This document shows positions 31,810-41,974 of a DNA stretch of 64,000 nucleotides, piece after piece. How positions within the stretch are numbered: position 1 is the first letter of the stretch; each line of letters starts with the position of its first letter. Source of the DNA: Anaerolineales bacterium (lineage in GTDB: Bacteria > Chloroflexota > Anaerolineae > Anaerolineales > Villigracilaceae); the NCBI GenBank assembly GCA_014379595.1, contig JACMLM010000009.1, positions 1 to 64,000 of the forward strand. The letters run 5' to 3'. The notes beneath the pieces were generated by a model. The model worked only from the letters and a program-made list of their open reading frames with translations, was not told the DNA's origin and did no database searches. The translations under genes were made by a program, and so were the position numbers.

Positions 31810-33483
31810 TTATCTCTTCAGTTGACGATACTTCACGCGATGCGGAGTGATATCTTTCCCAAATTTTTCCATCATCATCGTTTCGTAATCAGACCAGTTG
31901 CCAACATACATCTTGGCTTGTGAGTCGCCTTCGAAGGCGATGATGTGAGTGCAGATCCTGTCGAGGAACCATCTATCGTGGCTGACGACTACGACGACAC
32001 CTGCGAATTCTTCGATGGCTTCTTCCAATGCGCGCAAGGTATTCACATCCAGATCATTGGTGGGTTCATCGAGCATTAACACATTTGTAACTTCGGTTAA
32101 TGTCTTTGCGAGATGTACACGATTGCGTTCACCACCTGATAGCACGCCAACTTTCTTTTGCTGGTCTGCTCCTGCAAAGTTGAACGAGGAGACATATCCA
32201 CGTGAATTGACTTTGCGTTTGCCGAGTTCGAGAAAGTCCGCGCCGCCTGAGATTTCTTCGTGGACAGTTTTATCGGGGTCAAGTGTGCGGCTTTGATCGG
32301 CGTATGCAATTTTTACAGTCTCACCAATTTTGATCGTCCCACTATCTGGTTTTTCTGTGCCGTTGATCATTCTCAGTAATGTAGTTTTACCTGCGCCATT
32401 GGGACCAATGATGCCGACGATACTGCCGGGAAGAATGGATGCAGAAAATCCGTCGAGAATGAGGCGGTCGTCATATGATTTCGTGACGCCTTCAAATTCA
32501 AAAACAATGTCACCGAGGCGTGGACCGGGTGGGATGTAAATTTCCAGATCTTCGCGGCGCTTTTCAGCTTCCTGACTCAACAAACTTTCATAGGAAGTAA
32601 CACGCGCCTTGCCTTTGGATTGACGCGCCTTGGGCGACATGCGAATCCATTCGAGTTCACGGGCGAGGGTCTTCTGGCGTTGGCCTTCGGCTTTCTCTTC
32701 CTGTTTGAGACGTGCTTCTTTTTGTTCGAGCCACGCAGAGTAATTGCCTTTGTATGGAATACCATAGCCGCGATCTAATTCAAGGATCCAACCTGCAACG
32801 TTATCAAGAAAATAACGATCATGTGTAACGGCGATGACGGTGCCTTTGTAATCGCGCAGATGATGTTCGAGCCACGCAACGGATTCAGCATCAAGGTGAT
32901 TGGTAGGTTCGTCGAGTAAGAGAATGTCCGGTTCGGTGAGCAGGAGTCGAGTAAGAGCGACGCGGCGTTTTTCTCCACCTGAAAGAATCTTGATCGGTGC
33001 ATCCGATGGCGGGCAGCGCAGCGCATCCATTGCCACTTCCAAATGTGAATCCAGATTCCAGGCATCGTGCTTATCGAGTTGTTCCTGCAATTTGGCTTGC
33101 TCTGCAACGAGCGCATCGAAATCTGCATCGGGTTCGGCAAATTTTGCATTGACATCATCGAAGCGCGCGAGCATTTCGACGACGGGCTGAACCGCTTCTT
33201 TCACAACCTCGATCACTGTTTTTGTTTCATCGAGTTTTGGTTCCTGCTCAAGCAGCCCAATGGAATAGCCTTTGGCCGTGGAAATTTCGCCGATGTACTC
33301 CTGATCCACACCCGCAATGATACGCAGCAAGGTGGACTTGCCCGAGCCGTTAAGACCGAGCACGCCGATCTTGGCGCCGTGATAAAAACCGAGCGAAATA
33401 TCGCGCAGGATTTGTTTATTGGTAGATGGGATGATCTTCCCAACTTTGTTCATGGAGTAAATTACAAGTGATTCGTTTGACAT
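31810..33483 (-). CDS. ettA: Energy-dependent translational throttle protein EttA (ABC-F)
   Basis: 557 residues, the usual EttA length. Two ABC domains: Walker A GLNGSGKST and GPNGAGKTT, signatures LSGGEKRRVALTRLLL and LSGGERNRVHLAKTL, and Walker B LLLDEPTNHLD and LMLDEPTNDLD. The N-terminus VIYSMNKVGKIIPSTNKQILRDISLGFYHGAKIGVLGLNG and the linker GQRQKTLARELEWIRMSPKARQSKGKAR match EttA specifically. EttA binds the ribosomal E site and gates the first elongation step by ADP/ATP ratio. Two short remnants of a second copy flank it at 30349-30420 and 35621-35656. Confidence 0.93.
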   Translation of the reverse strand: MSNESLVIYSMNKVGKIIPSTNKQILRDISLGFYHGAKIGVLGLNGSGKSTLLRIIAGVDQEYIGEISTAKGYSIGLLEQEPKLDETKTVIEVVKEAVQPVVEMLARFDDVNAKFAEPDADFDALVAEQAKLQEQLDKHDAWNLDSHLEVAMDALRCPPSDAPIKILSGGEKRRVALTRLLLTEPDILLLDEPTNHLDAESVAWLEHHLRDYKGTVIAVTHDRYFLDNVAGWILELDRGYGIPYKGNYSAWLEQKEARLKQEEKAEGQRQKTLARELEWIRMSPKARQSKGKARVTSYESLLSQEAEKRREDLEIYIPPGPRLGDIVFEFEGVTKSYDDRLILDGFSASILPGSIVGIIGPNGAGKTTLLRMINGTEKPDSGTIKIGETVKIAYADQSRTLDPDKTVHEEISGGADFLELGKRKVNSRGYVSSFNFAGADQQKKVGVLSGGERNRVHLAKTLTEVTNVLMLDEPTNDLDVNTLRALEEAIEEFAGVVVVVSHDRWFLDRICTHIIAFEGDSQAKMYVGNWSDYETMMMEKFGKDITPHRVKYRQLKR

Positions 33484-35682: not shown

Positions 35683-35720
35683 AAATTAAAACGACGACCA
35701 AAGAGCCGTCATTTTAATTT
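35683..35720 (-). terminator. Terminator of the GHKL-STAS-NurA-HerA operon
   Basis: A 14-bp stem with one mismatch (35683-35696 with 35707-35720) and a 10-nt loop, followed on the minus strand by an AT-rich tract. It starts 18 nt after the HerA stop codon. Confidence 0.7.
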
Positions 35721-35737
35721 GTTACACACAACTAATA

Positions 35738-37468
35738 TCAATCATTGCGTGCAATATCCTCATCATCGACATGCATGTTTTTCATTAGTTGGGTCTGCTC
35801 TATTGATAATAATGTTTGAGCTCTTTCTTGTGTCCACTCGAACACCTGAATCGACTGAATTTTTGTGGGTTCACCAAAAGCAATCACTGCCGCCCCTCTA
35901 CCCATTGTTCGGATATCACCTTCATAGCCTTGAAAATCAGTCTTAGCATTGAACAAATCTTCAGTGTCGTTTTTGTTTGTTAAACGGAAAGTTATATAGT
36001 TATCAAATTGTGACAATATATTAGTATCTATACTGGAGGGTCGTTGTGTCACTGCAACTAGACCGATTTGGAAACTTCGACCTGTTTTTGCAAAGTTAAC
36101 AAAGACTGAATCTTCTTTTGCTTTATCTTTTGATAATAACAGATGGGCCTCTTCCACAATATAGACAAACGGAATTACTTTAGCTTGTTCGGTTTTATTT
36201 CCCGAACTAAATTTTTCATTGTGATTGTAAAGATCATTTGCTATTACAGTGCTTATAGTAGTCTTGTCGCCATCAGTTAATGCTGATTTGTCTAATATTA
36301 TCGTAGCACCTTTTTTTAACAACTCCTTAAGCATTGGGAGACAAGACGTATTGTCTTTGCTTATATAAGGCCGACTAGCAAGGCGTCGTAATTGTTTAAT
36401 AACGCCATGAATTGGGGTATAGCTACTAGGTAAAAAATCAGATGGATCAGTTTCATAATTCGCATCTTTTTCAACGCCTTTTTCACCTTTTTTTGAAAGG
36501 ACAATCCAACCTTTAAATATTTGGTGCCAATCACTCGTATCTGGGCTTCCATCTGTTTCACGTAGCAAAGTCCGAAATAGACCTGGTCTATCCTGGTACA
36601 TATCTAAAAACGTTTTTTGAGGCTGGGTGAGATCGCGGCCTGCAACATCCTCTAGATTTTCAGGAGGAATATCGTCAAGGCTAAATTTTAGAGGAATAAC
36701 TTTAGAAATATCATTCTCCAAACCTAATCCTTCATACTTCTCAGGATGCGCTGTTAGTAGGTAAAGATTTTTATCTGCTAATGGATGGTGACAAAGGCCA
36801 GATACAGTCTCTCCACTTTCGTTTGTAATATCGGCAATATATTCACCTTTAAGATCATCGATAACTTTTCCATATTTCAAATTTTCAAGCCAATGGCGAG
36901 CTATATTTCTCATTAGCGTAGATTTGCCATATCCTGATGTGCCTGAAATAAGTGTTTTAAAACCTCGAAATCGGTCTTCTAAAGTAACTGGAATATCTTC
37001 ACGCTTTGCGCCACCACGGAGCACACCAATCATAAAACCTTTACTAATATCTGGAGCTGCAATCAGTAAATCATGGTTTTTGTCTGTAGGCACCAAAAAA
37101 GTTTGCAGTACAGTTGGTTGGTCAGCTACACTTTCAATTCCTTGATCAGTAAACTCACCCTCAAGACGTAACCATGCTAATTCAGCACAATAATACTCAA
37201 GTGATCGTTTATCAAAGGGTTGCTCGGGATTCTCATCCACCATAGATAAAATTTGCTTAAGATCATAATTGTCATTGTAGTTGATATCTACGACGCGAAC
37301 CAAGAATTTGCGCTTGTATCTTTTATCATGAGCTAACCAGGTTGAACCCATTGTGACTCTCGGTAATACTTGTTTCGAGTCAAATTTAGCAATATAAAAT
37401 CCCTTTTGCTTATCTTTACCAATTATGACATTTACAGGATTAAGATTGTCTTCAATTCGTTTTACCAT
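35738..37468 (-). CDS. HerA-like bipolar DNA-translocating ATPase
   Basis: 576 residues. An N-terminal beta-barrel-like region (~1-150) precedes the RecA-type core: Walker A LISGTSGYGKSTLMRN (about 190), Walker B IPFVYIVEEAHLLLS (about 445), the sensor region NFAKTGRSFQIGLVAVTQRPSSID and FDNYITFRLTNKNDTEDL. This order is that of HerA/FtsK-clade ATPases (DUF87). HerA rings translocate along duplex DNA, usually with the nuclease NurA, whose likely homologue is the preceding gene, 17 nt upstream. Such pairs act in end resection in archaea and in several anti-phage systems. Confidence 0.85.
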   Translation of the reverse strand: MVKRIEDNLNPVNVIIGKDKQKGFYIAKFDSKQVLPRVTMGSTWLAHDKRYKRKFLVRVVDINYNDNYDLKQILSMVDENPEQPFDKRSLEYYCAELAWLRLEGEFTDQGIESVADQPTVLQTFLVPTDKNHDLLIAAPDISKGFMIGVLRGGAKREDIPVTLEDRFRGFKTLISGTSGYGKSTLMRNIARHWLENLKYGKVIDDLKGEYIADITNESGETVSGLCHHPLADKNLYLLTAHPEKYEGLGLENDISKVIPLKFSLDDIPPENLEDVAGRDLTQPQKTFLDMYQDRPGLFRTLLRETDGSPDTSDWHQIFKGWIVLSKKGEKGVEKDANYETDPSDFLPSSYTPIHGVIKQLRRLASRPYISKDNTSCLPMLKELLKKGATIILDKSALTDGDKTTISTVIANDLYNHNEKFSSGNKTEQAKVIPFVYIVEEAHLLLSKDKAKEDSVFVNFAKTGRSFQIGLVAVTQRPSSIDTNILSQFDNYITFRLTNKNDTEDLFNAKTDFQGYEGDIRTMGRGAAVIAFGEPTKIQSIQVFEWTQERAQTLLSIEQTQLMKNMHVDDEDIARND

Positions 37469-37485
37469 TTGTGCCTACCTTTTGT

Positions 37486-38766
37486 TTACCGCTCAAAGAT
37501 TTTGTGAGGATCTTCATTCCAGGTTGCAAAATCAACAGGGTGAAGACCTTTCTTTTGCAATGCAGTTATTAACTCAGCATTTAACCGGTCTTTACGATCT
37601 CCAGTTATTTTGCATCTGTTGTGTGCGTCGGCCAATACGATTGGATACCCAGATGAAACTAAACTCACTGTAGTTAAGTAGTCAATTTCTCCAATAGTAG
37701 GTATGATAAGTTTTTCAATATCTTCGTTCGTTACTAGTGTTTGGGTGCCAATATATTTATCATTCTCTTTTTGTGCAACATAGGTTTTTTTCCATTTACG
37801 CTTGCTTTTATTGAAATACTCGAGAGGTATTCCGCTCTCAACCAATGGACGAAATTCAGCTAAATCATATACATTAAACTCTAATATATAGAAATTGCGC
37901 GGCCCATTACCATATATTACCCAAGCACCGCCAATCCCTCCTAGTGATTGATTCTCTTGAGAGCCAAGCCGAATGGTCTTTGAATCTGCTTGATTGGAGT
38001 GATAAGCTTGATAGATCAGCTCCGGGGAAACTAAAGCCCAGTAAGCGGATTTCTTGATATCAAAAAATGCCTTATGATATGGATAAAGAATTGACCAAAG
38101 CAAAGTGCCTTGTTTTACAACTCCCACATATCTCACATTTTGTTCAACCGCCTTTCTTCCAATATCATCCGTATATCCAGCTGATACATTTTGTGAGCTG
38201 TGCCGGCCATCTTTGAGAAGAAGGCGGAACTCTAGTTCTGAATGAAACAAAGATGTTCTAACAGCTCGACGCTCCGTAGTCTCTCGATGACGTGCAGCCA
38301 CTAACCGTACTTTAAACTCCGGTACATTATTCTCCGCTAAGTCGTAAGGGCTTCTAGGGCTTGGGGTATGAATAAATGTACGAAGTTGGTAGTCTGCCAC
38401 ATGAAGCCTTAGTTTTTCTTCGGGGAGTGGGCTGCTATAAATTAAGGCTATTTCTAATGGCTCACTATCTCCTTCTGGAGCCTTTTCAGCCATACGCTCT
38501 TGAACAAAGCGGAGATGCCCATCATAGGGATCTGAAATAACCAAAGAAAAACTGTATCCAGCTATGGCTGCGCCCGGGTGATCCGGAATGTTTAGCAGTA
38601 AGTTGTCGCTAGAATCAATACCTCCCACTAAATCTTTAGGCTGGCGAGTTATTACTGACTCCAGTGTGCTCAACATATTTTTCAATATATCTTCATCAGG
38701 AGGAAGTTTTTCCAAATCTGCTAATTTATTTGTAATTACAGAGATGTTTCCATCAGTTTCACTCAT
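37486..38766 (-). CDS. NurA-like nuclease, HerA partner
   Basis: 426 residues. Assignment is by context plus weak motifs. GGIDSSDNLL (about 48-57) could be the metal-binding D-G-S motif I; YVGVVKQGTLLW resembles the conserved 'G-x-x-K' strand; and the C-terminal GYPIVLADAHNRCKITGDRKDRLNAEL reproduces the GYP-x-x-L-x-x-AH-x-A ending of NurA, including Tyr and His positions used in Sulfolobus NurA. The N-terminal ~100 residues are extra. It overlaps the upstream STAS gene by 4 nt (ATGA). If inactive it might be only a HerA adaptor. An unrelated alpha/beta fold cannot be excluded. Confidence 0.6.
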   Translation of the reverse strand: MSETDGNISVITNKLADLEKLPPDEDILKNMLSTLESVITRQPKDLVGGIDSSDNLLLNIPDHPGAAIAGYSFSLVISDPYDGHLRFVQERMAEKAPEGDSEPLEIALIYSSPLPEEKLRLHVADYQLRTFIHTPSPRSPYDLAENNVPEFKVRLVAARHRETTERRAVRTSLFHSELEFRLLLKDGRHSSQNVSAGYTDDIGRKAVEQNVRYVGVVKQGTLLWSILYPYHKAFFDIKKSAYWALVSPELIYQAYHSNQADSKTIRLGSQENQSLGGIGGAWVIYGNGPRNFYILEFNVYDLAEFRPLVESGIPLEYFNKSKRKWKKTYVAQKENDKYIGTQTLVTNEDIEKLIIPTIGEIDYLTTVSLVSSGYPIVLADAHNRCKITGDRKDRLNAELITALQKKGLHPVDFATWNEDPHKIFER

Positions 38767-39434
38767 TTTGCCTCACTATTAAGAACAGGAACAATAGGCG
38801 AATAGAAATAAGCCCAAGCTCGTGAATCTATGTCTAAAGCTCTTTGAATTTTACGAAACAGCCACGGATAATATTTAACAAGGTCGGTTAGTTTTCTGCT
38901 TGCGGCCTTTATGCCGTGTTCCTCTAAATCTGAAGAACTTACTACATTGAACTTATAAATTACATCTAGTATCTCTTTTAGAGCAGTTGGTATTTCTTGA
39001 CCAAGAAATTGATGCCCTGAAAAAACTTCATTCTGAAGTGTAGAGAAAACAACTATATTCTGTCTTGTATTTATTTGGTTCTCAAACTTCGGAAGCTTAA
39101 ATATTCCGTCTAGTCCTGTAGCAATTTCTTCACTGACATTACAATAAGTCAAATATACGTCACGGTCTAAACGACGTTTAATTAATTCTTGGAAAAGGAT
39201 CGGGCCAATTTCTTCTGCAACTGACGTTGTCATTTCTTCAACGCCAGCCATATTTATAACTAAAGTACTATTATCTATAGCGTACAGATGCTCAACTAAA
39301 GCCTTTCGCAATGGTATTCCTAGTTTTTCTCGATTCATTAAATACCCAAGAGAAAATTTAATCGGAAGTTTTTCCAACACTTCTATCACTGAAACAAATT
39401 CAATTTTTTGATCTTGTATTTCTATAATGTTCAT
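38763..39434 (-). CDS. STAS-like domain protein (DUF4325-like)
   Basis: 223 residues; ATG 39434 with GAGG upstream. Residues ~40-115 have the anti-sigma-antagonist pattern: a strand LVINMAGVEEMTTSVAEEIGPILFQELIKRRL followed by RDVYLTYCNVSEEIATGLDGIF. In STAS proteins the phospho-acceptor Ser sits at the turn before this helix; here TTS occupies it. The C-terminal third (EILDVIYKFNVVSSSDLEEHGIKAASRKLTDLVKYYPWLFRKI) looks like a winged helix, so the protein might bind DNA. It is between a GHKL ATPase gene and the NurA-like gene in one operon. Confidence 0.65.
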   Translation of the reverse strand: MNIIEIQDQKIEFVSVIEVLEKLPIKFSLGYLMNREKLGIPLRKALVEHLYAIDNSTLVINMAGVEEMTTSVAEEIGPILFQELIKRRLDRDVYLTYCNVSEEIATGLDGIFKLPKFENQINTRQNIVVFSTLQNEVFSGHQFLGQEIPTALKEILDVIYKFNVVSSSDLEEHGIKAASRKLTDLVKYYPWLFRKIQRALDIDSRAWAYFYSPIVPVLNSEAK

Positions 39435-39455
39435 CTTTTCCTCTTATACATTAAT

Positions 39456-40643
39456 TTATACTTGAACTCTTAATGCTTCCTCAATATTAGAAATTATTGC
39501 TAGCGGCATCACAGCACACAGATGTACTCCAGGTAAATAATCAGTTCCAGCAGAATGATATTCACGTTTAAGACCATCAGGTGTAATTATGCGATTATAT
39601 TTTCCACTGGAAATTGAAACCGTTCCTAGCGCAGAATTAATTACTGTGTTGATAATGGAAGGAAACCCACGCCCGCCACTGGTTTGGCGGGCGGAGATAC
39701 CGTTTGTAATAAGGTCCGTAGCATCCCACTCATTCTCTTGACCCATTGCACGAGCTAACCCCGATTTTATTGAAAAGACATGTAAAAATAGATGTGTATG
39801 TTGAGCAGGTATAAAATTGTCTTCTATATTACCAAAAGAAGAACTTGTGCCACGCTTTTCTTGTCTCAAAAAACAACAGACCCAACCACCTCCTCCCCAG
39901 TTATCAGCATTTTCGGCTGCCTCCATTATCACTCTGCGTATCGCTGAACGATGCTCTTTCTCAAAGTAGCCTGCATCGGCTAATCTATCAAAGTTGCTAT
40001 GAAACTCGGCAGTCAATTGACCATCGGTATTAGAACCAATAAATGTCAAGGGAATCAATACATCATCACATCCTTGCTGATGTGTTGGTTCAGTAGGATT
40101 TGTCGAATAAGAAAGATTGGGGCTTTTGATAAGAGAAAACAATCTTGTTTTCTCAATAAAACGTGTTGCTGCGTGATTTTGAGGTGGTAAGATAAGCTGA
40201 ATGTTAATTTGGGTATCACTTAAGCTTGATAAAGCGTAAATAAATCGAGACACTTCAACTAATGAAGGTAATGGTAAACTAGGTGGTAGATATATATCTC
40301 GTTCAGGATCCCAATCAGAAGCATAATCCCAATCGTATGCCCAACTTGATGCATTAAGTACTATTTCAATTTTTCTTGTTTTGTTTACTGAAAGAAGTGG
40401 CTCTATCCGAGATAGATGATATCCAAGTTCTCCCGAGTCGCTAAATGCTGATAATCTTATTTTATATTGTTGATTAGATATATTTTGATTAATCATTATT
40501 TGCTCCGCGAAAATCGTCTTACGATGAAATTTGGTCTTCAGTGACACACAATGTTCTATCCACCCAAAGTCAGTGGTTTGACAATAGGGGCATGTATATA
40601 AATCGTGCTGTACCCATGAATCGCAATTATGGCACTTTCTCAT
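39456..40643 (-). CDS. Zinc-ribbon GHKL (histidine-kinase-like) ATPase
   Basis: 395 residues. The N-terminal zinc ribbon is CHNC ... CPYC (residues 4-21). Residues ~225-390 form a Bergerat-fold ATPase: RRVIMEAAENADNWGG (N box, with Glu and Asn), FSIKSGLARAM (G1-like), and SARQTSGGRGFPSIINTVINSALGTVSISSG (lid and G2). There is no dimerisation phospho-His domain, so it is of the RsbW/SpoIIAB or MutL-like type rather than a classical kinase. The adjacent STAS protein is the expected partner in a switch. It is the first gene of the operon, behind a consensus promoter. Confidence 0.7.
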   Translation of the reverse strand: MRKCHNCDSWVQHDLYTCPYCQTTDFGWIEHCVSLKTKFHRKTIFAEQIMINQNISNQQYKIRLSAFSDSGELGYHLSRIEPLLSVNKTRKIEIVLNASSWAYDWDYASDWDPERDIYLPPSLPLPSLVEVSRFIYALSSLSDTQINIQLILPPQNHAATRFIEKTRLFSLIKSPNLSYSTNPTEPTHQQGCDDVLIPLTFIGSNTDGQLTAEFHSNFDRLADAGYFEKEHRSAIRRVIMEAAENADNWGGGGWVCCFLRQEKRGTSSSFGNIEDNFIPAQHTHLFLHVFSIKSGLARAMGQENEWDATDLITNGISARQTSGGRGFPSIINTVINSALGTVSISSGKYNRIITPDGLKREYHSAGTDYLPGVHLCAVMPLAIISNIEEALRVQV

Positions 40644-40656
40644 AGCTCGTTATCCT

Positions 40657-40742
40657 ACGTTTTACCTGTCAAAGTAAAACCATTATATCGAAAATAACCA
40701 GAATGTCAAGGATTTACAAGCGCTGGTAAAACGTGCTAGAAT
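40657..40742. promoter_or_regulatory. Divergent promoter pair flanked by a 10-bp inverted repeat
   Basis: Minus strand: TTGACA (complement of 40704-40709), 16-nt spacer, TATAAT (complement of 40682-40687), driving the GHKL operon. Plus strand: TTTACA (40713-40718), 18-nt spacer, TAGAAT (40737-40742), driving the DruA-like gene. The two -35 boxes are only 3 nt apart. A perfect inverted repeat ACGTTTTACC (40657-40666) / GGTAAAACGT (40725-40734) brackets both promoters. It could be a pair of operators for one regulator controlling both units. Confidence 0.7.
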
Positions 40743-40768
40743 GATATATTCGAGACCGAATTTTCCTA

Positions 40769-41974
40769 ATGAAAAAGAATAATCTGAAAAGTAAAAAGAA
40801 GAAAAATCAAAAAATTAAAGCTTCTGGAGTACTTAGGCATGAAAAAGCTCTGAGTGCTAAGCGGTTACGAAAGTTGGTAATTGCTGAATTAGAAGAACTT
40901 GGGCTTTCTTTCAAAAACGAATCCCTTCAACCATCAGAAAACACTAAAGAATTTACTCAACAACTTCATTTGCCCGCACGAGAAATTGTATTGGCTAGCG
41001 CGGGCGAATGGATAACCTATGCTTGGGAAAAACACAAAGATTTTTTTGCCAAAGGCCAAGATATAAATCCGAAGTTTGTTTCCCCAAAACTAATAGAGGT
41101 TGTAACAAAAGATCAAAAAGAGTTGTTTCGATTAGCTCGTTATACTTGGTCATTGCCATACACCAAAGGATATGGGCGTAGATTGCAGTACTTATTGATG
41201 GATCAGTCAAATGATAAGTTGATTGGAATTCTTGGTTTGCAGTCTCCTCCCCTTTCATTCCCGGGAAGAGATAAATTATTTTCATATCCAGAGGGGAAAA
41301 AAACTGAGCTACTCAATCAGACTATGGATATTTACACATTAGGAGCTATTCCTCCATATTCAAGACTACTCGGCGGGAAACTATTAGCGCTAGCTTCTGC
41401 TAGTAATGAAGTAAGGCTTGCCTATAAAAGAAAATACAGCGGTCAAATAACCTTGATGGAGGAACGTAAATTACCTGCTCGATTAGTAGCATTAACAACT
41501 ACTAGTGCGTATGGTAGAAGTTCAATATATAATAGACTAAGATATAACGACACAGTCAAGTTTCAATCTCTAGGATACACTGAAGGTTATGGAGCATTTC
41601 ATTTAGAAAGGCTATACCCCAAATTTCGTGTATTTCTAGAAGCTCAAGAAATTAACACTTCTGGTGGTTTTGGCAAGGGGCCTCGCATAAAATGGCAAAT
41701 AATGGTCCGTGCTCTTGAAAGAATAGGATTTGATAGCAGTCTGCTTCGTCATGGGGTGAAACGTGAAATTTTTCTTATTCCACTTATTCGTAATCTCAAA
41801 AGTTATATGGAAGGTGTTCAGAAAAGGCCAGATTTTATTGATGCCTCGTTTGATGAGCTTGCAGACTTTTGGCGAACTCGATGGCTTATTCCTAGATCAG
41901 AACGCGTTGACGGTTGGTGTAATTGGAACCCTAGAAAGATTGAGGATCTTCTGTTTATTAAAGAGGAAAACTAA
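40769..41974 (+). CDS. DUF4338 protein, Druantia DruA-like
   Basis: 401 residues with a very Lys-rich start. The core matches my knowledge of the DruA/DUF4338 family: YGRRLQYLLMDQSNDKLIGILGLQSPPLSFPGRDKLF, then QTMDIYTLGAIPPYSRLLGGKLLALASASNEV, RKYSGQI, LVALTTTSAYGRSSIYNRLRY, and LLRHGVKREIFLIPL. DruA is a component of type I Druantia, an anti-phage system whose biochemical role is not settled. The other Druantia proteins, notably the large helicase DruE, are absent. Here it is divergent from HerA/NurA/STAS/GHKL genes. No clear ribosome binding site precedes the ATG. Confidence 0.75.
   Translation: MKKNNLKSKKKKNQKIKASGVLRHEKALSAKRLRKLVIAELEELGLSFKNESLQPSENTKEFTQQLHLPAREIVLASAGEWITYAWEKHKDFFAKGQDINPKFVSPKLIEVVTKDQKELFRLARYTWSLPYTKGYGRRLQYLLMDQSNDKLIGILGLQSPPLSFPGRDKLFSYPEGKKTELLNQTMDIYTLGAIPPYSRLLGGKLLALASASNEVRLAYKRKYSGQITLMEERKLPARLVALTTTSAYGRSSIYNRLRYNDTVKFQSLGYTEGYGAFHLERLYPKFRVFLEAQEINTSGGFGKGPRIKWQIMVRALERIGFDSSLLRHGVKREIFLIPLIRNLKSYMEGVQKRPDFIDASFDELADFWRTRWLIPRSERVDGWCNWNPRKIEDLLFIKEEN

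What the first reader, a model, noticed from the sequence alone, without database searches (positions are those of the whole stretch)
35738..41974. Candidate new defence cassette: DruA-like gene divergent from GHKL, STAS, NurA-like and HerA-like genes
Seen: five genes in two divergent units, tightly packed (ATGA overlap, gaps of 17-21 nt), visibly AT-rich compared with neighbours, with a shared promoter and flanked by an unrelated phosphoesterase gene and by a remnant gene. Known: HerA plus NurA is a DNA-processing pair; DruA (DUF4338) belongs to Druantia type I. Inferred: the cassette couples DruA to HerA/NurA without DruE, which I do not recognise as a described system.
Basis: partly seen in the sequence, partly recalled or inferred. 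Interest (0 to 1): 0.88.

Follow-up and report, generated by a model that had tools for sequence, protein, structure and literature searches.

The report
DruA coupled to NurA–HerA DNA shredder
A bacterial gene cassette pairs DruA, an enzyme shaped like a phage enzyme that chemically marks DNA, with a DNA pump and a likely DNA-cutting partner, and this pairing recurs in many bacteria, which hints at a little-noticed way of telling own DNA from invading DNA.

Summary
DruA and the HerA-like ATPase pass profile searches. The NurA, STAS and GHKL labels do not; they rest on motifs, gene order and weak similarity. The five-gene order was found nowhere else, but its core, DruA + NurA-type + HerA without DruE, recurs: 16 of 23 DruA-bearing genomes among 350 Chloroflexota, and 8 of 16 loci of a GTDB-wide DruA scan; 22 distinct genomes in four phyla. 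In two of these (window, Tengunoibacter) the NurA-position protein is not recognised by Pfam. DruE-linked DruA is the minority. DruA-linked HerAs form three separate groups, so partners were exchanged. The DruA model has a GNAT fold; phage Mu Mom, a DNA-adenine-modifying enzyme, ranks first among solved structures but is tied with other GNATs; a direct profile comparison with Mom was not significant. Related NurA–HerA pairs sit beside a DndC-like enzyme. Best reading: a compact restriction–modification-like defence in which DruA marks self DNA and NurA–HerA degrades unmarked DNA; in the window, GHKL/STAS-like genes may regulate it. Modification and defence are untested inferences.

The parts
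40769..41974 (+). DruA (DUF4338), 401 aa, GNAT fold with a lysine-rich N-terminus (9 K/R in the first 20 residues); proposed DNA-marking enzyme
   Evidence: PF14236 E 2.3e-86, PADLOC DruA E 5.7e-97, model pLDDT 82.4, GNAT/Mom fold matches, N-terminus
39456..40643 (-). GHKL-like protein, 395 aa, with an N-box-like EAAENADN and a GGRG motif and possible N-terminal zinc ribbon; possible regulator
   Evidence: motifs only; zinc-ribbon hits below cut-off; no homologue in 349 other genomes
38763..39434 (-). STAS-like protein, 223 aa, possibly with a C-terminal winged helix; possible regulator
   Evidence: no family hit; best of the DUF4325 loci E 0.0059
37486..38766 (-). NurA-position protein, 426 aa, with D51, D186-G187 and H382 of a NurA-like pattern; proposed nuclease
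   Evidence: 29% identity to the NurA-position protein of Tengunoibacter; motif columns; weak profile similarity to NurA groups; no PF09376 hit
35738..37468 (-). HerA-like hexameric DNA translocase, 576 aa, intact Walker A (176) and Walker B (434)
   Evidence: PF01935 E 3.5e-8; PADLOC HerA E 3.6e-20; motifs
40644..40768 (.). Shared divergent promoter region with two back-to-back promoter-like sites and an inverted repeat of 10 nt per arm (40657-40666 / 40725-40734)

Best explanation
The cassette is a variant of a recurrent DruA–NurA–HerA module that most likely works as a compact restriction–modification-like defence. Proposed steps: (1) DruA, a GNAT-fold enzyme, transfers an acyl group from CoA to a base of the host's DNA and so marks it as self (inferred). 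(2) HerA forms a DNA-pumping hexamer that feeds DNA to the NurA-type nuclease (inferred from the families). (3) Marked DNA is spared and unmarked invading DNA is degraded (inferred by analogy with Tdp and with R-M systems). (4) In the window only, a GHKL/STAS-like pair in the nuclease operon and a promoter region shared with divergent DruA tune nuclease against marker (speculative). Shown here: the gene association, its recurrence, partner exchange, and (by prediction) the GNAT fold of DruA. Not shown: any DNA modification, nuclease activity or phage protection.
For: Recurrence: 16 of 23 DruA genomes in 350 Chloroflexota (NurA and HerA called by similarity to the profile-confirmed L050/L051/L055 proteins, with Pfam run on some) and 8 of 16 GTDB loci; all 21 outside the window on one strand. 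Three separate HerA groups carry DruA and the DruA tree is discordant with it. DruA fold: GNAT, Mom ranked first, Z 10.5 over 181 residues; one DruA also hits PF25680 Mom, E 1.6e-4, below its cut-off. The third gene beside related pumps is a DndC-like enzyme in L038, whose NurA matches solved TdpB at E 1.3e-55, and a D12 adenine methylase beside a HerA in L134. The genome has a second NurA–HerA locus on contig C11, so this set is accessory; DruA is patchy, 23 of 350.
Against: No modification or defence data. Mom is tied with KKT23 (10.1) and other GNATs (9.9 and below); only 1 of 33 DruAs hits the Mom profile; hhalign of Mu Mom against DruAs gives P 0.07-0.29, no better than against unrelated sets (0.065-0.72). 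PMC10853773 (passage) reads the same domain in DndF as an effector on proteins. The window's NurA-position protein hits no NurA profile and its structure prediction failed. In the window DruA is not in the nuclease operon.
Confidence: 0.48

Rival explanations
1. Defence without a DNA mark: DruA acylates a protein (HerA, NurA, or a host or phage protein) or senses infection, and NurA–HerA is an infection-triggered nuclease that can kill the host cell.
For: Most GNATs act on proteins or small molecules; PMC10853773 suggests DUF4338 in DndF acts on proteins (passage); DUF4297–HerA degrades host and phage DNA by abortive infection (PMC11291478, passages). The window adds GHKL/STAS-like regulators.
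Against: Related NurA–HerA pairs have DNA-modifying neighbours; Mom is the top-ranked fold match.
Confidence: 0.22
2. Inverted logic: DruA modifies invading DNA or a lesion and so makes it the target of NurA–HerA.
For: The same anatomy would serve.
Against: It offers no means of sparing host DNA unless DruA itself discriminates; no such domain was seen.
Confidence: 0.1
3. A DNA-repair set: NurA–HerA resects DNA ends and DruA regulates it.
For: Archaeal HerA–NurA acts in end resection (listing of PMC12977600 and others).
Against: DruA is patchy (23 of 350 genomes), the genome has another NurA–HerA locus, Tengunoibacter's copy lies between two integrase-like genes (read from sequence), and three family members have the triplet within 0.3-2.1 kb of ettA with different NurA/HerA types.
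Confidence: 0.1
4. In the window, DruA and the nuclease operon are neighbours by chance, or the cassette is decaying.
For: Only here is DruA divergent; the 21 others are on one strand; the GHKL-like gene has no homologue found.
Against: All five frames are open, lie in one low-GC island and share a promoter region; the closest HerA and NurA-position relatives, in Tengunoibacter, also sit with a DruA.
Confidence: 0.08

Closest known systems
Druantia type I (DruABCDE)
   Same: DruA, same Pfam family
   Different: No DruE helicase; NurA-type nuclease and HerA instead
Tdp (TdpA–TdpB–TdpC; mechanism recalled, papers not in the library)
   Same: HerA-type pump (TdpA, E 9.8e-24 with the HerA profile) plus NurA-type TdpB plus a third gene
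   Different: The third gene is DruA, not a DndC-like enzyme; the window's NurA-position protein is not close to TdpB
BREX-related capture (BRC) systems, PMC12839542 (passages)
   Same: HerA/FtsK pump with a GNAT proposed as a DNA mark
   Different: Seven-part PglZ-based system; no NurA and no DruA mentioned in the text (0 occurrences)
Phage Mu Mom and Mom–REase fusions of jumbo phages, PMC7824862 (passages)
   Same: GNAT-fold DNA modification as self-mark, paired with a nuclease
   Different: Phage-borne; other nuclease; DruA is larger and only distantly similar
DUF4297–HerA (PMC11291478, passages)
   Same: HerA hexamer working with a nuclease in phage defence
   Different: Other nuclease family; no DruA in the text
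Archaeal and bacterial HerA–NurA end-resection complexes
   Same: Pump plus nuclease pair
   Different: A repair role and no DruA; the window genome has such a pair elsewhere

Membership tests
DruA (PF14236) | Profile match above cut-off over the domain | tested here: met
   290.1 bits against a cut-off of 27, positions 3-297 of 297
HerA/FtsK ATPase | PF01935 match and Walker motifs | tested here: met
   34.3 bits against 23.2; Walker A and B present
NurA (PF09376), window protein 37486-38766 | Profile match above cut-off | tested here: not met
   No hit; not found at E 10
NurA, window protein 37486-38766 | Profile-profile similarity to accepted NurAs and catalytic-type residues | tested here: inconclusive
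   Best of six NurA groupings P 0.0013, probability 18%; the others 0.0024-0.18; five decoys 0.042-0.6; accepted pairs 0.0004 to 0.06. D51 and D186-G187 invariant in 9 sequences, H382 in 6 of 9
NurA, triplets elsewhere | PF09376 match above cut-off | tested here: met
   8 of 10 tested from triplets: P0012, L054, L059, L058, L050, L051, L053, L086; not P0008; L099 below cut-off
Druantia (all types) | DruE (DUF1998 helicase) in the locus | tested here: not met
   No such ORF at 30-48 kb; only short weak helicase matches elsewhere in the genome
Tdp | TdpC (DndC-like) gene | tested here: not met
   None of the five window proteins hits a DndC model
Mom (PF25680) | Profile match above cut-off | tested here: not met
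   1 of 33 DruAs hits, below cut-off; the window DruA does not
Mom / GNAT fold | GNAT fold | tested here: met
   Top 50 VIA-align entries are almost all acyltransferases, Mom first at Z 10.5. Fold only, no function
Mom | Acyl modification of DNA bases | not testable with these tools
   Needs mass spectrometry
STAS-like DUF4325 (PF14213) | Profile match | tested here: not met
   No match in the window genome or; best pairwise hit to a DUF4325 protein E 0.0059
GHKL ATPase | Profile match or full N, G1, G2 boxes | tested here: inconclusive
   No profile hit; N-box and GGRG motif seen by eye, G1 box atypical
Anti-phage defence system | Protection in a plaque assay | not testable with these tools
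   Needs experiment

The most novel reading that the evidence does not exclude
DruA is a Mom-type DNA acyltransferase and its commonest partner is NurA–HerA, not DruE. Bacteria would then have a widespread restriction–modification kind whose self-mark is a CoA-derived acyl group on a base, with Druantia I a branch that took DruA up with DruE; in the DruA tree the DruE-linked DruAs lie at two places among NurA–HerA-linked ones.
Probability: 0.33. Interest if true: 0.87.

Novelty: new variant of a known kind. Interest (0 to 1): 0.72.

Why it matters
DruA's role in Druantia is unexplained; a 2026 paper says that the genes other than DruE have no recognised domain (PMC13316683, passage), though PMC10853773 names DUF4338 a GNAT (passage). 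A minimal three-gene context with recognisable partners turns the question of what DruA does into a mass-spectrometry and restriction test. If DruA marks DNA, NurA–HerA becomes a restriction engine that accepts different self-marks. My library searches listed no paper on DruA with NurA (long listings were capped); the library lacks most subscription journals and holds no bioRxiv preprints.

Tried and rejected
Led nowhere: single-protein searches for the NurA-position protein (1 of 61 genomes, itself; viral contigs; plasmids), the GHKL-like protein (1 of 350, itself; plasmids; viral contigs), HerA in genome contigs, the STAS-like protein in plasmids and P0008 in plasmids. The DruA and NurA-position alignments found no relatives in viral contigs. 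Structure prediction of the NurA-position protein failed (pLDDT 33.8) and was not used. Solved-structure searches with DruA, NurA-position, GHKL-like and STAS-like sequences gave nothing meaningful. PHROGs gave weak unknowns, apart from phrog_19197 (E 8e-6, unknown function) for DruA.

Considered and rejected: a lone DruA transposon beside an unrelated operon. No terminal repeats stand out around DruA and the genome has one copy. Empty-site test: it could not be made, since the phosphoesterase flank has only distant homologues (35% identity or less) in other same-genus genomes and the VanZ-like flank is in 5 of 40. L101 was not counted as a triplet because its two partners hit no Pfam model. 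L056 was not counted because it is one ORF with a HerA N-terminal part joined to DruA. L057 was not counted because its contig begins inside HerA. The Tdp papers were not in the library, so Tdp's mechanism is recalled. Whether R-M genes are enriched beside ettA was not tested against other sites. The later-found Chloroflexota triplets were not put in the HerA tree.

Changed after rechecking: two of the triplets (window, Tengunoibacter) are now stated to have an unrecognised NurA-position protein, and the best-of-six choice and the failed Mom comparison are stated in full; confidence of the best explanation is 0.48.
Full report
What is in the window. Four minus-strand genes (HerA-like, NurA-position, STAS-like, GHKL-like) lie at 35738-40643 and DruA on the plus strand at 40769-41974. 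Packing is tight, GC is 0.380 in a 64-kb window of 0.443, and the intergenic space carries two divergent promoter-like sites, one a perfect match. DruA (PF14236, E 2.3e-86) and HerA (PF01935, above cut-off) pass profile tests. The other three labels do not. For NurA the evidence is the position upstream of HerA, the residues D51, D186-G187 (invariant in 9 aligned sequences) and H382 (6 of 9), 29% identity to the protein in the same place in Tengunoibacter, and a weak profile similarity: the best of six NurA groupings gave P 0.0013 at 18% probability, the others 0.0024 to 0.18, five decoys 0.042 to 0.6, while pairs of accepted NurA groups ranged from 0.0004 to 0.06. The GHKL and STAS names rest on motifs read by eye and on weak similarity of the STAS-like protein to a DUF4325 protein (E 0.0059), which has a GHKL-sized gene just upstream.

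Recurrence. A scan of GTDB contigs with a DruA alignment gave 16 loci. Eight hold a complete set: L045, L050, L051, L053, L054, L055, L058, L059. L057 begins inside HerA and continues into DruA; L056 is a single ORF with HerA and DruA parts. L046 and L047 have DruB, DruC and DruE, L049 DruB up to the contig end. L048, L052 and L060 are other or unresolved. Separately, PF14236 is in 23 of 350 Chloroflexota genomes. I fetched the neighbourhoods of 20 and already had the other three (window, G122, G353). Sixteen are DruA + NurA-type + HerA: G000, G039, G075, G091, G113, G122, G127, G165, G173, G176, G204, G264, G293, G353, G369, G375. Two carry DruE (G172, G320), two are other (G206, G349), and three end at or near a contig edge (G074, G144, G387). 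In the 13 of these newly fetched, NurA and HerA were called by similarity to reference proteins, with Pfam run on L086 and L099 only. In G000 and G353 the NurA-position protein is not recognised by Pfam. Of the 21 outside the window, 16 have the order DruA-NurA-HerA, 4 NurA-HerA-DruA, and 1 DruA-X-NurA-HerA, all on one strand, mostly with small gaps or overlaps; overlaps come partly from longest-start ORF calls. The window is the only divergent case among them and the only one with GHKL/STAS-like genes.

Partner exchange. In a tree of 41 HerAs the nine DruA-linked ones form three groups with full support each: window + Tengunoibacter; two Chloroflexota + two Cyanobacteriota; one Armatimonadota + two Bacillota. 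At least two changes are forced; long branches are flagged. In a tree of 33 DruAs the window's is nearest to L096, L092 and L094 (58% identity to L096), whose NurA and HerA are of the L051 type, unlike the window's. DruE-linked DruAs lie at two places among the NurA–HerA-linked ones. DruA and the nuclease pair have therefore been recombined.

What DruA is. An AlphaFold2 model from 16 sequences is good (pLDDT 82.4, pTM 0.80). Foldseek lists GNAT acetyltransferases, none at E 1e-3 or better. VIA-align over 997 chains puts phage Mu Mom first, Z 10.5, 181 residues aligned, rmsd 3.7; KKT23 follows at 10.1 and GNATs from 9.9 down, so the order is a tie. That DUF4338 is a GNAT is already stated in PMC10853773 (passage). 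The Mom lead is new here as far as my searches show. It is supported by one DruA (L101) that hits PF14236 and, below its cut-off, PF25680 Mom, but only 1 of 33 DruAs does so, and hhalign of Mu Mom with DruAs was not significant: P 0.07 to 0.29 against 0.065 to 0.72 for other sets.

Why a self-mark is the preferred reading. The genome with the L037/L055 triplet (G122) also holds a DndC-like gene (PADLOC E 1.5e-58) with NurA and HerA; that NurA matches the solved TdpB at E 1.3e-55, so it looks like a Tdp system. In L040 a HerA and a NurA-like gene are followed by an ORF with a DNA-methyltransferase look (read from sequence, not run against a profile). In L134 a D12 adenine methylase stands beside a HerA. 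Context: in three genomes of the window's family (L037, L099, L100) the DruA set lies within 0.3 to 2.1 kb of an ettA-like gene, and in the window 2.3 kb from it, with VanZ-like and LysM/CAP genes between. Of 17 other ettA-side stretches fetched, several cut short by contig ends, five hold a DNA methylase within about 8 kb (L134, L136, L142, L143, L145); Pfam was run on ten chosen proteins of seven stretches. No background rate was measured. The genome has a second NurA–HerA locus on contig C11, so the cassette's pair is accessory.

Against. No mark, nuclease activity or protection is shown. GNATs have many substrates, and PMC10853773 reads this domain in DndF as acting on proteins (passage). 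The nuclease label of the window protein is not secure. The role of the GHKL/STAS-like genes is a guess.

Prior art. Papers seen in passages: PMC10853773 (outline and abstract), PMC13316683, PMC11090510, PMC7824862, PMC12839542, PMC11291478. The nearest published ideas are Mom–REase fusions in jumbo phages and seven-part BRC systems with HerA and a GNAT. Searches for DruA with HerA and Druantia, NurA with HerA, defense and phage, DUF4338, DruA with NurA, Druantia with Mom and GNAT and momylation with NurA, HerA and GNAT (12 of 280 listed) listed no paper on this module. The NurA-type proteins P0012, P0008 and L051 hit no PADLOC 2023 model.

Noticed in passing
window 40657-40666 and 40725-40734; 40659-40665 and 40674-40680: Operator-like repeats in the shared promoter region: perfect 10-nt inverted arms (18 of 2000 first-order simulated sequences do as well) and a nested 7-nt GTTTTAC/GTAAAAC pair; a possible repressor site covering both promoters.
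   Followed up: partly
window 31810-33483; L037, L099, L100, L134, L136, L142, L143, L145: The region upstream of an ettA-like ABC-F gene looks like an exchange site for DruA sets and DNA methylases in this family; no background rate was measured.
   Followed up: partly
L038 9302-13245: A Tdp-like set (DndC-like, NurA matching TdpB at E 1.3e-55, HerA) in the same genome as a DruA–NurA–HerA triplet.
   Followed up: partly
L134 6360-10530: D12 adenine methylase, HerA and a 440-aa protein without Pfam hit beside ettA: perhaps a methylase-type version of the same logic.
   Followed up: no
L040 6502-11146: HerA, a NurA-like gene and an ORF with a DNA-methyltransferase look in a row (read from sequence).
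   Followed up: no
L036 5999-7006: The 335-aa protein X between DruA and the NurA-position gene of Tengunoibacter has no Pfam hit; the locus also has a DEDDh exonuclease-like gene and lies between two integrase-like genes (read from sequence).
   Followed up: partly
L056 9173-10807: In Argonema one ORF joins a HerA part to DruA (Pfam DUF87 and DruA): deletion remnant or true fusion.
   Followed up: no
L101 5153-8841: A short DruA that also hits PF25680 Mom, with two partners of 353 and 565 aa without Pfam hits: possibly another DruA/Mom-like system.
   Followed up: no
DruA model m72fca09eef92: Strong structural matches among predicted viral proteins (Faunusvirus E 1.3e-16, Yasminevirus 4.7e-15, a Caudovirales fragment 1.5e-8): DruA-like proteins seem to occur in giant viruses and phages.
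   Followed up: no
window 35683-35720: A 14-nt near-perfect hairpin just after the HerA stop codon, possibly the operon's end.
   Followed up: no
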